A stretch of 64,000 nucleotides of DNA from Candidatus Avelusimicrobium luingense (GTDB lineage Bacteria; Elusimicrobiota; Elusimicrobia; Elusimicrobiales; Elusimicrobiaceae), in the NCBI GenBank assembly GCA_900315845.1, contig OOHK01000001.1:186001-250000 (forward strand), written 5' to 3'. Under the pieces are notes generated by a model. It searched no databases, was not told the origin of the DNA, and was given only the letters and a program-made list of their open reading frames with translations. The translations under genes were made by a program, and so were the position numbers. Shown here in pieces: positions 50,317 through 58,800 of the stretch. The first letter of the stretch is position 1. The number at the start of each line of letters is the position of its first letter.

Positions 50317-50868
50317 ATGAATCGGAAAGCCTTTACACTCATTGAATTATTAGTAGTTGTTTTAATTATCGGTATTTTGGCCAGTGTCGCCTTGCCACAA
50401 TATCAAAAGGCTGTTGAAAAAAGTAGGGCGACACAAGCGCTTACACTACTCAAATCATTGGCACAAGCGCAAACAGTTTATTTTTTAAGTAACGGACATT
50501 ATGCCACCTCTTTTTCTGAACTAGACATAGAAATTCCATGGACGGGAAATGAAAAATGGTTTACGAATTGGATAACAGACACCCGCTCCAATGGCGAGTG
50601 GTCCGTACAAATTTATCAATCAAACACAGAAACTCAACTTTTTGTGGGCCGCTTAAAAGGACGGTATGCCGGTGCAGGATTTTACCTGTCTCTTGCATTA
50701 AATGCTACAAGTATAGCAAACGAGCGAACGGAAAATGACATTTTTTGTGGAGAAGTTCTCTCTGGCGAAACCATTGCCTACAATGGGCCGGCCGGGGGAT
50801 ATTGCAAAAAATTATTTGGGGCAACCTTGGTACAAACTAACACATCCCGAATCTATAAAATGCCCTAA
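50317..50868 (+). CDS. Type IV prepilin (pilin D) between two convergent tRNA genes
   Basis: Type IV pilin/pseudopilin, 183 residues. Leader MNRKA with Ala at -1, then FTLIELLVVVLIIGILASVA with Glu +5 and LPQYQKAVEKSRATQALTLL. The head has two Cys (IFCGEV, GGYCKKL) near the C-terminus, placed like the disulphide loop of type IV pilins. AAGGAG precedes the ATG. The gene is alone between tRNA-Gln and tRNA-Arg(CCT), with inverted copies of a structured element on both sides, so gene plus flanks form a ~1.1 kb cassette. Its 5' coding sequence closely matches that of pilin 54187. Confidence 0.94.
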   Translation: MNRKAFTLIELLVVVLIIGILASVALPQYQKAVEKSRATQALTLLKSLAQAQTVYFLSNGHYATSFSELDIEIPWTGNEKWFTNWITDTRSNGEWSVQIYQSNTETQLFVGRLKGRYAGAGFYLSLALNATSIANERTENDIFCGEVLSGETIAYNGPAGGYCKKLFGATLVQTNTSRIYKMP

Positions 50869-51055: not shown

Positions 51056-51092
51056 AAAAATAAAAACCCGCCTAGGCGGGCTTTTTATTTTT
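51056..51092. terminator. Hairpin abutting tRNA-Arg(CCT), terminator on both strands
   Basis: A5-T-A5-CCCGCC / GGCGGG-T5-A-T5 inverted repeat with one bulged base and a TA centre. It starts exactly at the tRNA discriminator position (51092), as the hairpin after tRNA-Gln does. Confidence 0.85.
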
Positions 51093-51165
51093 ACCCCCGG
51101 CGGGAGTTGAACTCGCAACCTCTTCCTTAGGACGGAATCGCTCTATCCAATTGAGCTACGGGGGC
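51092..51165 (-). tRNA. tRNA-Arg (anticodon CCT), with stem mismatches
   Basis: 74-base cloverleaf on the minus strand: acceptor GCCCCCG/CGGGGGT (G1-T72 wobble), D arm GCTC/GAGC, anticodon stem ATTCC/GGAAG (A-G mismatch at the base) with loop GTCCTAA giving CCT (reads AGG), T arm GCGAG-TTCAACT-CCCGC (one A-C mismatch). Discriminator A, CCA not encoded. Probably functional, but less regular than the other two tRNAs. Confidence 0.88.
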
Positions 51166-51171
51166 GTGAAA

Positions 51172-52329
51172 TTATTTGTTAGAAGTACGGCGACGTCCCG
51201 TTTTACGAGCGGTTTTTTTAACCACTTTTTTAGTTGGCTTGCGGGTTGCTTTTTTAGCCACTTTTTTTACTGCCTTTTTGGCAGTTTTTTTATTCGGCTT
51301 TACTTTTTTAACAACCTTTTTAGAAGTCTTTTTGGAAGCAGATTTTGTTTTTTTGGCCATCGTCGTTTTGGCTTTCTTTAGCAATTTGGCCAGAGCCCCT
51401 TGCGGGCGTTCTTCACCTAAGATATTTGTTTTGATATGAGGTTTCATAGCCGCATGAAGTTTACGGGTGCGAAAGTCCGACGTTGAAACTTCTAAAATAC
51501 CGGCCTTTATCGCTTCGCGGCGTAAAATACCGACGGCACGCTCTTCAATTTGGCGCACACGCTCACGCGATAATCCAAGCACGTCTGCCACTTCGCCTAA
51601 TGTCTTTGGTTCGTTATCATCAAGCCCATAACGCATAATGATAATTTGGCGGTCGCGGTCATTTAAGTCCGCCATACTTTTTTTAATACGGTTATGATCT
51701 TCCTGTTTAACAAACACATCATGCGGGTTGCCCTTGCCGTCGTCACTAAGCACGTCTTCCAGCGTCATTTCATCTTCTTCATACACTACGGTTGCCAAAG
51801 AATCAATCCCTTTGGCCGCCTGCAACGTATCCATGATAGATTTGACTTGCCGGGCGGATAAATCTAATTCTTTCGCCATTTCTTGCAAGGACGGATCCCG
51901 TCCGTTGGCTTCTTTTAATTCATTCCACGCGCGGAACCACCTTTTCAAATTTCCCCACGCATGTGACGGAATTTTAATAGAACCCGACTGTTCTTCAATA
52001 TATTTGCGGATATATTGTTCTATCCAATACACGGCATAGGTGGAAAAACGGTATCCTTTAGACGGATCAAATTTTTCTATCGCTTGCAACAACCCTAAGT
52101 TTCCTTCTTCAATTAAATCCATTAACTCCATGCCCGGACGCAAAAAGCGTTTGGCGGTCGGCACGACGAGCCGTAAATTACTTTCCAAAATTTGTTGTTT
52201 GGCGGCGCTATCGCCTTTTTTGGCTAACGTCCAAAGGCGAGAAGTTTCCGCGCGGTCAATTTCGCGGGTAATTTTACCAAGTTGCTTAAAATATTCGTTG
52301 GCACTGTCTAAAGAATCTGCTTGTTCCAT
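51172..52329 (-). CDS. RNA polymerase sigma-70 factor with histone-like C-terminal tail
   Basis: 385 residues. Sigma regions: 1.2 (SLDSANEYFKQLGKI), 2.1-2.4 (LRLVVPTAKRFLRPGMELMDLIEEG, FDPSKGYRFSTYAVYWIEQYI), region 3 (KIPSHAWGNLKRWFRAWNEL, PSLQEMAKELDLSARQV), and 4.1-4.2 (LNDRDRQIIIMRYGLDD, LGEVADVLGLSRERVRQIEE). Region 1.1 is absent. Region 2.4 (AVYWIEQYIRKYI) differs from the ATWWIRQAI of housekeeping sigma factors, so it may be an RpoS-like alternative. Residues ~325-385 are a Lys/Ala/Arg repeat tail like histone H1 (KKTSKKVVKKVKPNKKTAKK), very unusual for a sigma factor. The start at 52329 is chosen because a TATGAT box lies six bases upstream; 52335 is an alternative. Confidence 0.92.
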   Translation of the reverse strand: MEQADSLDSANEYFKQLGKITREIDRAETSRLWTLAKKGDSAAKQQILESNLRLVVPTAKRFLRPGMELMDLIEEGNLGLLQAIEKFDPSKGYRFSTYAVYWIEQYIRKYIEEQSGSIKIPSHAWGNLKRWFRAWNELKEANGRDPSLQEMAKELDLSARQVKSIMDTLQAAKGIDSLATVVYEEDEMTLEDVLSDDGKGNPHDVFVKQEDHNRIKKSMADLNDRDRQIIIMRYGLDDNEPKTLGEVADVLGLSRERVRQIEERAVGILRREAIKAGILEVSTSDFRTRKLHAAMKPHIKTNILGEERPQGALAKLLKKAKTTMAKKTKSASKKTSKKVVKKVKPNKKTAKKAVKKVAKKATRKPTKKVVKKTARKTGRRRTSNK

Positions 52330-52335
52330 ATTCAT

Positions 52336-52344
52336 ATCATATCA
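52336..52344 (-). promoter_or_regulatory. Extended -10 box of a putative leaderless sigma-factor transcript
   Basis: On the minus strand TGA-TATGAT, then ATGAAT and the ATG at 52329. No Shine-Dalgarno is seen upstream of either ATG. Confidence 0.5.
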
Positions 52345-52396
52345 AATTTTTTCCGCTGTGCCACCTTACCTTAAACACCCACAAAGCACAAAGGAC

Positions 52397-54186: not shown

Positions 54187-54708
54187 ATGAATAACCAAGC
54201 CTTTACGCTTATTGAGTTATTAGTAGTCGTTTTAATTATCGGCATTTTGGCCAGTGTAGCCTTGCCGCAATATAAGGTGGCGGTAGCCAAAGCACGGATG
54301 ACGCAACTAGTCACGCTGGCTAACGCAGTAAAACAAGCCGAAGAAAGATACTATATGGCCAACGGACAATATACAGCCAATTGGTCAGAACTGGATATTG
54401 ATTTGGAAGGAACTGTAAATAATACAACCATTACAAATGCCGCCGGATGGGGCTTGAATTTAAATTCATATATAGAAGGATCAAATTGGGAATCGGTATC
54501 GGCCTGGGACACACGTTTAGCCTATGACGGGGCGGCGGCTTCCAAACATCTGTATTTGACTTTTTCTTTTGATAACGCCCATGCACATGCCGGAGCCAGA
54601 CTTTGCTTTACTCCCCAAAACAGCGAATTAGGTATCACGCTGTGCAAACACGCCAGCAATAACGCTCCCCGGCAAAGCCAAACCGGGCAATACTGGTATA
54701 AGTTCTGA
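54187..54708 (+). CDS. Type IV prepilin (pilin E)
   Basis: Type IV pilin/pseudopilin, 173 residues. Leader MNNQA with Ala at -1, mature FTLIELLVVVLIIGILASVA with Glu +5, then LPQYKVAVAKARMTQLVTLA. Head region includes ANGQYTANWSELDIDLEGT, a common motif (ANGxYTxxxxELD) shared with the other pilins here, and two Cys (ARLCFTP, TLCKHA). AAGGAG precedes the ATG. Its stop lies 5 bases from the stop of the convergent pilin at 54714, with no terminator between them. Confidence 0.94.
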   Translation: MNNQAFTLIELLVVVLIIGILASVALPQYKVAVAKARMTQLVTLANAVKQAEERYYMANGQYTANWSELDIDLEGTVNNTTITNAAGWGLNLNSYIEGSNWESVSAWDTRLAYDGAAASKHLYLTFSFDNAHAHAGARLCFTPQNSELGITLCKHASNNAPRQSQTGQYWYKF

Positions 54709-54713
54709 TCTGA

Positions 54714-55190
54714 TTAGCGCAAGGCGTAGCAGTTATAACCGCTTTCCGGACAAGTGACCTTGTCGATGCCTACGGTTTTGCAAAAGTCATTGGCTTTGGT
54801 ATCGCTCGCCGCAGCCACACAATCATATGTTCCGCGTGCCATATAATAAATAATGTACCAACGTCCGGAATTTCCGAGTTTGCGTCGTTCTGCCTGAATA
54901 TGCATGACAGAAGTATTAGTACTATGAATGGCTACGGCAAAATCCGGATTGGAAGGGACGGACAGATCTAACTCATCTACCTGGCCGGTATATTGTCCGT
55001 TGGCCAAATGATAAACTTCTTCGGCCTGAACGATGGATCTGACCATGGTAACGGCTTGCACCAAATGAGATTTTTCTATGGCTTTTTGATACTGTGGAAA
55101 TGCCACCGCCGCCAAAATGCCGATAATTAAAACTACCACTAAAAGTTCAATGAGTGTAAATCCGCCTAAACGGCTTGATATTTGTTTCAT
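54714..55190 (-). CDS. Type IV prepilin (pilin F)
   Basis: Type IV pilin/pseudopilin, 158 residues. Leader MKQISSRLGG with Gly-Gly before cleavage, mature FTLIELLVVVLIIGILAAVA with Glu +5, then FPQYQKAIEKSHLVQAVTMV. The head has YHLANGQYTGQVDELDLSV and four Cys (TYDCVAA, DFCKTV, VTCPES, YNCYALR). The leader resembles that of pilin 26802 (SGRLGG), while its convergent neighbour has the Ala -1 type. GAGG precedes the ATG. Monocistronic as far as can be seen. Confidence 0.93.
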   Translation of the reverse strand: MKQISSRLGGFTLIELLVVVLIIGILAAVAFPQYQKAIEKSHLVQAVTMVRSIVQAEEVYHLANGQYTGQVDELDLSVPSNPDFAVAIHSTNTSVMHIQAERRKLGNSGRWYIIYYMARGTYDCVAAASDTKANDFCKTVGIDKVTCPESGYNCYALR

Positions 55191-55864: not shown

Positions 55865-58800
55865 TTACTGGCCGATAGCCTTGTACCCGTGGATTTCCAC
55901 CCACACGTCGCCTTTTTCGTCAAAGACGTACGCATCGTGGGATGTTTTGCCGTCTGCCGTATAACCGCGGCTGACGCCATACAAATACAACTGCGCAGGC
56001 GGAAGTTCATTTTTCAAAATAGCCACTTCATCAATTGCATCGGGAAGCGTCATTTTGTTTTCTACCGTCATATCTTGGAAACCACAGCATTGGAACGCGG
56101 CTTCAATCAACATTGGGTTAGCCAGTAGCGTGCGCGGCCCGTCAAGCCATTGGGGGCGCGGTGTGGTATTATACAACGCCAAAGAACCCGTTGTATCTAC
56201 CCGCAATATACCGCCCAACACTTGAAACGACGGCCCATGGAAATACTTTTTATAGATTTCTTCTTTACTTACACTGACTGGATCGTGTATGTTCGCCAAC
56301 GCGGCGGCTTTTACATTATCCCACGTAGAAACAAAGTTTGCTAACGTATGGGCTGTAAAATGGCGGCGGGTGTTACCCATTTTAATTCCTTTGCTATTGA
56401 TAAAGTCAGACTCAATTTCCATATTTACGTCTGCCCCTTGCACTTTACCAATGACGCGCACCGCTTGTGGGCGACGGCGCAAGAGTTTAATAGGCAAGTA
56501 GAAATGGACGTCTTTCAACCCGTGCGGGACATGGCCCGTTAATGCCGTAGCGGTTTGGACAAAGGTTTCAATGCCCATGACACCTGGCACATAAGGGGTG
56601 CCTTCAATAGCGTGGTCGGCTAAATACGGGTCGGACTCTAAATTAAATTCCTTTTCCGTATGGATTTCCGCCCCCGGAGTGACCGCAGTTACCGTTCCCA
56701 AAAAATGTGTGGCTTTGGAAACATCGGGTTTAGCAGACGCGGTAGGAGCCACCGACGGGGCCGGCGTATTGTTGACCGGAGTAGTTGCGGACGGAGTGGA
56801 AGTCGTCGGCGTAGGCGCAAGCGTGTTGCCGGCACCGGACGGCACGATTTCATCCATTTCCGTACGGAGTTGGTGGTCCCAATCCAAGTTACCGAGAGCG
56901 CCCGTCAGTACGATTTCCGGTACCGTTCCATAAACGATTTCGTCTAAGAAAATCTGCATACCGTCTTCGGGGTCCACAAAGTCCACGCCGTTAGCGCGTA
57001 AGAATTGTTCTACACCGGCGCGCACCCCCATACCGACATTTTTGTAAGCGCTCATGGCAATCGCAATGGCGCGGTAGCCTTGGTTGGTCAGCGAGAAGGC
57101 TGATTTGGCTAAATAGTCGTTGGCACTTGCATAATCGCTTTGACCGAGGTTACCGTATTTACCCGCAATAGATGAGGCAAATGCGAAGAACCCACCGTCA
57201 CGCACGATATTATTAGCAAGGAACAGAGCAAAACTGGTGGCTTTTACGTCAAAGATACGGTAATATTCCGCCGGATCTTTATCGTAAATAAGTTTAGAGC
57301 GTTCCAACCCCGCAAAGTGGATAAGTCCGTCCACACGGCTGTTTTTGGCTTTGATTTTCGTGCAGACTTCTTTGACCATGGAACTGTTGGTTACGTCACA
57401 ATGGTAATACTCCACTTCCGCGCCCAAATCGCGCAGTTTTTGCAAGTTGTTATAGAGAGTCACCGAATCTTTCACGCGCCCAAACGCCCGTTCTAACATC
57501 ACCGGGGTAGCACGCTTAGTGGTATCGGCTTTCATTTCTTCCCATAACTGCTTTTTGAGCATCGCCAGTTCGGCTTCGTTCATTTTGGCCCATAACGGTG
57601 TTTTTTCTTGCAGTTCAATAATATCTAATACGATAATTTTGCTGTGATATTGGGCAGCGATTTTTTGAGCCAGCATTGCTCCGATACCGCGGCCCGAACC
57701 GGTAAATATAATCGTTTTTCCGGTTAAATCACACCGTTTGACACTTCTGTCCAAACGAACAGGAACGGATAAAATCGTCGTCCGTTCGCCACCGCGCGTA
57801 CCGATCATCAGGCGCATATCGCCATGCAAGACTTCATCCATGGTTTTTTGAGCCATTTCATCGGGGGTGACAGTCGGTTCAAAGTCTAACAATTTAGCAA
57901 TCGCTCCGGTGTGTTCGTACACGTCGCGGCGGAAACAGGTTGTGCCGCCACACAAGGCACCCGTAATGGGGTTAAACTCATCTTTGGTCGTGTAACCGAA
58001 CGTACCGTCAATCTTGGTATTTACGGCAAAGAATGTATCGGCATCCGTGCGGTTGGCGAGTCCTTTTTCAAACACACGCAAGGCAATAAACAGCGGCATT
58101 ACGTATTTAGTTAATTCGTTATGCGGGCTGACTTTTTTGTCAAACTTTTTGACGTTCGCGCCGAGCAAATACACAATACCTTGCACGTTGGGATCTTCCT
58201 GTGCGTACTCTTTGAGTGCGGCTTCTGTTTCTTCATACGATTCCCAATTTACAATAGTCGTATTTTTGCTGCGCGTTTTAAGAGTAGTGAAAATATGATA
58301 TTTCACACCGAGTTCTTTACATTCTTCCTGATATGCTTTAATAAGTTGGGCATTATCGGCAAAGATAAGAACCGTGCGGTCTTTGGACAACCGGCGGTTT
58401 TCACGCACGGACAAAGGCGCAGGAGCCACTACCGTTACATGACGCAGTTTCTTTTCGTGGCAGTGTTCTCCGGCGTATCCTTCGCGCTCGGGCCGTTCGG
58501 CTAATGATTCGCGTACTTGCACCGGAGCGGTGGGATTAGTGGTCAACATTTCTTCCGTCGGTTTACCGATTTCTCCGGCAGACGGAACGGCTTCTTCCAC
58601 TTTTTCCACATGAATTTCCGGGAGCGCCGATCCTTGCGAAACAGGGGTTTGTGTCACGGGAGTCGGCTCTACCGTTGCCGTTTGTACCGGGGTAACTACC
58701 GGAGTAGCCGGAGTTTCAACCGGGGTTTGCGCTTGCTCGACAGGCGCAGCCGTTTGTGCCGTAGGCGCGGCAGCGGTATGCGACAAGGCAAAATTGATAC

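What the first reader, a model, noticed from the sequence alone, without database searches (positions are those of the whole stretch)
51172..52329. Sigma-70 factor ending in a histone H1-like lysine tail
After a complete region 4.2, about 60 residues consist of KK/TKK/VKK/ARK repeats like eukaryotic H1 or bacterial AlgP/Hc1. A DNA-binding tail on a sigma factor could alter promoter scanning or condense DNA. Region 2.4 also departs from the housekeeping sequence, and its own transcript looks leaderless.
Basis: partly seen in the sequence, partly recalled or inferred. Interest (0 to 1): 0.62.

Follow-up and report, generated by a model that had tools for sequence, protein, structure and literature searches.

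The report
Stress-type sigma factor with lysine tail
An uncultured gut bacterium carries a second, stress-type transcription-start factor that ends in a long, shapeless, lysine-rich arm; the close relatives that were read carry one too, keeping its positive charge while its letter order drifts, so it probably helps the protein grip DNA.

Summary
The minus-strand ORF 51172-52335 (conserved start 52329) encodes a sigma-70 factor with an H1-like tail: the last 60 residues are 50% K+R. The window lies in an Elusimicrobiaceae genome whose RpoD is elsewhere and has no tail, so this is an RpoS-like alternative sigma factor.

The tail is no assembly error. All 44 distinct close orthologues read have one (45-106 aa after a conserved motif, K+R 30-44%). 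Core dN/dS is 0.01-0.03; distal tails are scarcely more alike than shuffled ones (44% versus 38%) yet stay 34-57% K+R, so composition is what is selected. A T[ND]ILG block between region 4.2 and the tail is in all 75 distinct orthologues of four families. Endomicrobia orthologues carry an Arg-rich (DRR) end instead; others end at region 4.2.

A conserved -10 element 5-8 nt before the ATG supports a leaderless start. Region 2.4 departs from RpoD, but across the whole gene family.

Best explanation, untested biochemically: a disordered polycation at the end of region 4 grips upstream DNA nonspecifically. Lysine repeats on a sigma factor (HrdB) are already in print; this is a new variant.

The parts
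52336..52364 (-). Promoter-like site: GTGGCA, 17 nt, TATGAT with a TG before it; the -10 ends 6 nt before the conserved ATG at 52329, so the transcript would start at or next to that ATG
   Evidence: 3 promoter-like sites found against 2.4 expected in shuffles, so the match alone is not significant; conservation: TANNNT 5-8 nt before the ATG in 41 of 55 distinct orthologues of this family, 0 of 37 others
51172..52335 (-). Sigma-70 factor gene, 387 aa from the first ATG; conserved start probably the third codon at 52329 (385 aa)
51520..52188 (-). Sigma core: regions 2, 3 and 4 (residues 50-272); -35 reading motif SRERVRQIE intact
   Evidence: invariant columns; alignment
51412..51471 (-). Conserved block after region 4.2, RTRKLH...KTNILGE (residues 289-308)
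   Evidence: T[ND]ILG-type motif in all 75 distinct orthologues of families f1, f2, f7, f8 (L030 and L085 with variant letters); invariant R, T, L, H, N, G among 29 rows
51175..51414 (-). Tail after the motif (80 aa, K+R 44%), lysine-rich from residue 320 on; residues 339-387 predicted disordered
   Evidence: composition; pLDDT about 40 from residue 341; control
51092..51165 (-). tRNA-Arg (anticodon CCT), 6 nt after the sigma stop codon, same strand
51062..51085 (-). Terminator-like hairpin (10 pairs, then T run) just after the tRNA; suggests a sigma-tRNA transcription unit

Best explanation
The gene encodes the RpoS-like (group 2-type) alternative sigma factor of an Elusimicrobiaceae gut bacterium. 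It has a two-part C-terminal extension: a short conserved block (RTRKLH...TNILG) next to sigma region 4, and a disordered lysine-rich arm. The arm most likely acts as a sequence-independent electrostatic clamp. It leaves the end of sigma region 4, which in known holoenzymes sits on the -35 element, and would lie along the backbone of DNA upstream. That would raise the on-rate and lifetime of the early promoter complex, and so help a minor sigma factor compete with RpoD. Shown: the gene, intact regions 2-4, the presence of the arm in all close orthologues read, selection on composition with nearly free sequence, predicted disorder, the conserved block, and a separate RpoD. Inferred: that the arm binds DNA, where it binds, and the effect on promoter competition.
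For: Regions 2, 3, 4 over cut-off; best NCBIfam match RpoS_proteo, 240.6 bits; -35 recognition motif SRERVRQ invariant in 42 rows. Arm in 44 of 44 distinct close orthologues, K+R 30-44%, net +13 to +38, at most 8 acidic residues. Distal arms 43.6% identical against 38.3% for shuffled arms over 120 sampled pairs, yet K+R 34-57%; neutral drift to strong divergence lowers K+R to about 0.2 in simulation. Core dN/dS 0.01-0.03, arm 0.11-0.55 in the 19 computable of the 22 closest pairs. Arm predicted disordered, pLDDT about 40. Genome has three Sigma70_r2 genes. Precedent: C-terminal lysine repeats of Streptomyces TopA, described as H1-like, slow its release from DNA, and the authors list similar repeats in sigma factor HrdB, Ku and HupS (PMC7398561, passages read).
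Against: No binding or transcription data. Relatives whose protein ends at region 4.2 have intact regions 2-4, so the arm is not needed for sigma function as such. The genome has a normal alpha-CTD, so the arm is not a replacement for it. Polycations also bind RNA and acidic proteins. Arm length varies more than twofold (45-106 aa), so no fixed geometry is implied. One member of the same family (G126, 92% complete) shows no such gene at all.
Confidence: 0.5

Rival explanations
1. Regulatory extension: the conserved TNILG block docks on region 4 or core polymerase, and the arm is the handle of a partner (acidic protein, acetylation, protease), switching the sigma factor on or off in place of an anti-sigma factor.
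For: The block is strongly conserved at nearly fixed spacing, which a DNA-gripping arm alone would not need. Extensions on ECF sigma factors often go with the lack of an anti-sigma factor, and in ECF42 the sigma4-proximal part must contact sigma4 for activity (PMC9023288, passages read).
Against: The arm itself keeps composition, not sequence, which fits an electrostatic partner better than a specific one. AlphaFold gives the block only moderate confidence and no fold match beyond sigma factors was found in the listed rows.
Confidence: 0.2
2. Nucleoid tether or compaction: the arm parks the sigma factor on bulk DNA or helps condense the nucleoid in starvation.
For: H1-like composition; [quoted passage not shown] The genome has RelA/SpoT and one HU gene in a 104 aa frame, too short for a long tail.
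Against: A sigma factor is normally scarce compared with nucleoid proteins (established knowledge), so compaction is unlikely; tethering is not excluded.
Confidence: 0.13
3. Polyanion sensing: the arm binds polyphosphate or RNA, which inhibits or redirects the sigma factor in starvation.
For: Polyphosphate binds lysine-rich stretches in E. coli proteins (PMC12345225, passages read); that paper cites Yang 2010 for polyphosphate binding to the H. pylori principal sigma factor (reference entry only seen; that paper is not held).
Against: No PPK1 or PPK2 match in this genome, 94.5% complete, while controls ring. RNA remains possible.
Confidence: 0.07
4. The arm is a tolerated, largely functionless low-complexity extension that grows and shrinks by slippage.
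For: Arm dN/dS is about ten times the core's or more, and length varies; a short, imperfect repeat lies in its DNA (51247-51292, 2 copies, 82% matches).
Against: 44 of 44 distinct close orthologues keep it, always strongly basic, although the distal sequence is almost randomised; simulated neutral drift loses the charge. Arm dN/dS is still below 1 (0.11-0.55).
Confidence: 0.08

Closest known systems
RpoS / group 2 sigma-70 factors
   Same: Regions 1.2-4.2 without region 1.1; best NCBIfam hit RpoS_proteo; SigA, RpoS and RpoD chains are the closest solved sequences
   Different: 240.6 bits against a curated cut-off of 378.7; about 100 extra residues after region 4.2; proteobacterial RpoS regulators were not looked for
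HrdB/SigA principal sigma factors of Actinobacteria
   Same: Lysine repeats reported on a sigma factor (HrdB, PMC7398561); a disordered N-terminal stretch matters for M. tuberculosis SigA (PMC10011835, abstract and passages)
   Different: Principal sigma factors; the disordered stretch is N-terminal in SigA (for HrdB N-terminal placement is recalled, the passage names no end). Here the arm is C-terminal, on an alternative sigma factor
Streptomyces/mycobacterial topoisomerase I, HupB/HupS and Ku lysine tails
   Same: H1-like lysine repeats that hold the protein on DNA (PMC7398561)
   Different: Not sigma factors; effect here untested
ECF sigma factors with C-terminal extensions (OrbS, ECF41, ECF42, CorE)
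   Same: Extension after region 4, with (ECF42) a region-4-proximal part that matters (PMC9023288)
   Different: Those are ECF (group 4) factors with folded or metal-binding extensions; this is a group 2-type factor with a polycation
Histone H1 tail / AlgP / Hc1
   Same: K/A/P/T/S-rich composition
   Different: No relevant Pfam match for the tail alone (sole hit an unrelated family at E 6.2); no globular H1 domain

Membership tests
Sigma-70 family | Regions 2, 3 and 4 over curated cut-offs | tested here: met
   65.3, 44.6 and 69.9 bits against 24, 25.3 and 24.1
Housekeeping (group 1) RpoD | The primary sigma gene of the genome, over the RpoD model cut-off | tested here: not met
   RpoD_Cterm 211.8 bits, cut-off 354; a separate 573 aa frame matches at C7
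Group 2 (RpoS-like) | RpoD-like regions 1.2-4.2, no region 1.1, alternative to RpoD in the same genome | tested here: met
   the N-terminus begins directly at region 1.2 (region 1.2 judged by eye)
RpoS (proteobacterial equivalog) | Score over the RpoS_proteo cut-off | tested here: not met
   240.6 against 378.7 bits
RpoS (proteobacterial equivalog) | General stress/stationary-phase regulon | not testable with these tools
   no expression data
Histone H1 / Hc1 / AlgP | Match to a family model | tested here: not met
   none for the 68-residue tail at E up to 10
DNA-binding lysine-repeat proteins | Measured tail-dependent DNA binding | not testable with these tools
   needs protein

The most novel reading that the evidence does not exclude
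A whole bacterial lineage has equipped its alternative sigma factor with a built-in, sequence-independent DNA-gripping arm at the -35 end of the promoter complex. The arm is kept as a polymer of defined charge rather than as a sequence, is joined to region 4 by a new conserved docking block, and has an arginine-rich (DRR) counterpart in the related class Endomicrobia. It would be a general promoter-complex stabiliser that lets a minor sigma factor compete with RpoD.
Probability: 0.35. Interest if true: 0.68.

Novelty: new variant of a known kind. Interest (0 to 1): 0.5.

Why it matters
Sigma factors are usually pictured as compact, sequence-reading modules. A composition-conserved disordered arm on an alternative sigma factor would be a clean natural test of how nonspecific DNA contact shapes promoter search and sigma competition: relatives with long, short and no arms exist in one phylum at the same ancestral gene position. 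The T[ND]ILG block is a further, unexplained part of the transcription machinery.

Tried and rejected
Assembly error: rejected, many independent assemblies carry the arm. Chance or a general habit of this genome: rejected at the sensitivity used; sigma C-termini rank 1-31 of 240 ORFs, and a search of the whole genome with the 68-residue tail found only itself and one weak stop-broken stretch at E 0.04. A DNA pattern for KKxKKxKK found 4 places, the same number as the reversed control, and does not match the sigma tail itself, so it says nothing. Replacement of a missing alpha-CTD: rejected, alpha-CTD is present. Arm as a promoter region for the tRNA: unlikely, the arm persists where the tRNA is inverted (12 of 44 distinct close orthologues) or not found within 900 nt. 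Polyphosphate: no PPK1/PPK2. The neutral simulation alone is weak: at about 40-60% pair identity it still leaves K+R at 0.31-0.36; it counts only because shuffled tails show that the measured identity is mostly composition. Structure: the full model has low global confidence (pTM 0.31); the region 4 plus extension model is moderate (pLDDT 75, pTM 0.46) and its listed matches are known sigma factors. Not done: any search for tailed sigma factors outside Elusimicrobiota. 23 of the 93 genomes with a hit at 1e-60 were not read for their C-terminus (all more distant, same phylum).

Full report
What is there. The minus strand of 51172-52335 encodes a 387-residue protein. Pfam places sigma-70 regions 2, 3 and 4 at residues 50-116, 135-205 and 221-272, all over their cut-offs. 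NCBIfam's best model is proteobacterial RpoS (240.6 bits, cut-off 378.7), ahead of RpoD_Cterm (211.8, cut-off 354). The window lies in a 1.46 Mb genome in 8 contigs, 94.5% complete; named relatives are uncultured Elusimicrobium, Elusimicrobiaceae and Ca. Avelusimicrobium, many from animal guts by their record titles. The genome has three genes with sigma region 2: this one, a 573 aa frame on C7 that reads as RpoD without any tail, and a 204 aa frame on C8. The finding is therefore an alternative, group 2-type sigma factor, not the housekeeping one.

The tail is real and general. The loci gave 112 proteins, 95 distinct, one of them RpoD, so 94 distinct orthologues. Among 149 phylum genomes, 93 matched at E 1e-60, including 30 of 30 of the same genus (own genome counted) and 42 of 43 of the same family. 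I read the C-terminus in 70 of those 93 genomes plus 41 named loci. In the 44 distinct close orthologues (same genus or named relatives near it) the part after the T[ND]ILG motif is 45-106 aa, K+R 30-44%, net charge +13 to +38. As a control, among 240 ORFs of the window and 31 named loci the 31 recognised sigma C-termini take ranks 1 to 31 by net charge.

Selection on composition. In the 22 closest pairs, core dN/dS is 0.01-0.03; the arm gives 0.11-0.55 in the 19 pairs where it could be computed, and aligns poorly. One pair has a practically identical core (dN 0.001) and arms only 72% identical. The distal arm is 43.6% identical between 120 sampled pairs against 38.3% after shuffling, so its order is nearly randomised, yet K+R stays at 34-57%. 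Neutral simulation from the window's tail brings K+R down to 0.21-0.24 at strong divergence. AlphaFold gives the arm pLDDT about 40.

A second part: the TNILG block. Between region 4.2 and the arm lies RTRKLH, about eight residues, then KTNILGE. In families f1, f2, f7 and f8 all 75 distinct orthologues have a T[ND][ILV][IL]G-type motif, mostly 24-26 residues after the GLIE-like end of region 4 (range 23-29; 74 by the expression, plus L030 with RNILG; L085 reads NLLG). In f2 and most of f7 the protein ends soon after it in a short basic stub; longer basic ends also occur in f8 and part of f7 (L087, L093, L095). Proteins read from f3, f4, f6, f9, f16 and f21 end at or just after region 4.2; the f5 protein has a different 38-residue end (L106). 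All ten Endomicrobia orthologues, and L114 of a further family, carry a different, arginine-rich end with DRR/ERR repeats. A quick tree of 67 rows (the 44 close ones thinned), with the extension left out, needs 8 changes among these states (22 of 64 inner branches are weak). So basic C-terminal ends recur in this gene in two chemical forms.

Orthology by position. tRNA-Arg(CCT) lies on the same strand about 500-790 nt downstream in 36 of the 50 distinct orthologues outside the close group, with a gene that reads as adenine phosphoribosyltransferase between, in the cases inspected (the name is my reading of the sequence, not a search result). In the close group that gene was not seen at the site: the tRNA follows the sigma stop within 4-11 nt in 28 of 44 and at 33 nt in one more, is inverted in 12, and was not found in 3. 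In the window the gap is 6 nt, and a terminator-like hairpin follows the tRNA, which suggests a sigma-tRNA unit.

Leaderless start. In 41 of 55 distinct orthologues of this family a TANNNT hexamer ends 5-8 nt before the conserved ATG, against 0 of 37 others; Shine-Dalgarno-like matches of at least 4 nt are in 6 of 55 and 28 of 37 (L072 and L109 were not scored, and L088, which lacks the hexamer, belongs to the family but was counted with the others). In the window the -10 ends 6 nt before the ATG at 52329. Five of 47 window ORFs, this one included, have such a hexamer and no Shine-Dalgarno-like match of 4 nt, so it is not unique to this gene. The promoter scan alone is not above chance (3 found, 2.4 expected); conservation is the evidence.

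Region 2.4 and 4.2. Own RpoD reads STYATWWIRQSINRAI, this protein STYAVYWIEQYIRKYI. The stretch 97-111 is invariant in the 42-row alignment that includes Endomicrobia, and the other families shown mostly read YWIEQ or YWIDQ as well, so it marks the whole gene family and is not linked to the lysine arm. The region 4.2 helix SRERVRQIE, which reads the -35 element, is intact and close to RpoD's TRERVRQIE.

Mechanism and limits. Region 4 sits on the -35 element in solved holoenzymes (established knowledge), so an arm from its end is placed to touch DNA upstream. Lysine repeats on the C-terminus of topoisomerase I slow its release from DNA, and the same authors list such repeats in sigma factor HrdB (PMC7398561, passages read). 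I therefore favour a nonspecific DNA clamp, at 0.5. The conserved block argues for a further protein contact, as in ECF42 sigma factors (PMC9023288, passages read). No binding data exist here.

Novelty. Papers searched for sigma factor with lysine repeats, lysine-rich tails, polybasic tails, C-terminal extensions, and Elusimicrobia sigma factors or RpoS showed in their listings no report of a C-terminal lysine arm on a sigma factor; the library lacks most subscription journals. HrdB makes lysine repeats on a sigma factor known, so this is a new variant of a known kind.

Exceptions. G126 (same family), G082 and G120 (same order) show only an RpoD-sized frame, and G142 has matches in several pieces. 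The gene is thus dispensable in some lineages, or missing from incomplete genomes.

Noticed in passing
window 51062-51172: tRNA-Arg(CCT) starts 6 nt after the sigma stop and is followed by a terminator-like hairpin; sigma - apt-like gene - tRNA-Arg is widespread in the phylum, with the middle gene absent here.
   Followed up: partly
L063-L072, L114 (C-termini): Endomicrobia orthologues end in an arginine-rich DRR/ERR repeat extension instead of a lysine arm; function unknown.
   Followed up: partly
window 29339, 32376 (+): Two other genes have a TAAAAT hexamer at leaderless distance and no Shine-Dalgarno-like match; leaderless starts may be common in this genome.
   Followed up: no
window 50317-50868, 54187-54708, 54714-55190: Several type IV pilin-like genes with a near-identical N-terminus (FTLIELLVVVLIIGILA) scattered around the locus; more lie beside rpoD (L002).
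   Followed up: no
window 55865-63838: A 2657 aa frame that looks like a multi-domain fatty-acid/polyketide synthase with four near-identical acyl-carrier-like repeats (name from reading the translation, not from a search).
   Followed up: no
G126, G082, G120, G142: Three relatives show no copy of this sigma gene and one has it in pieces.
   Followed up: partly
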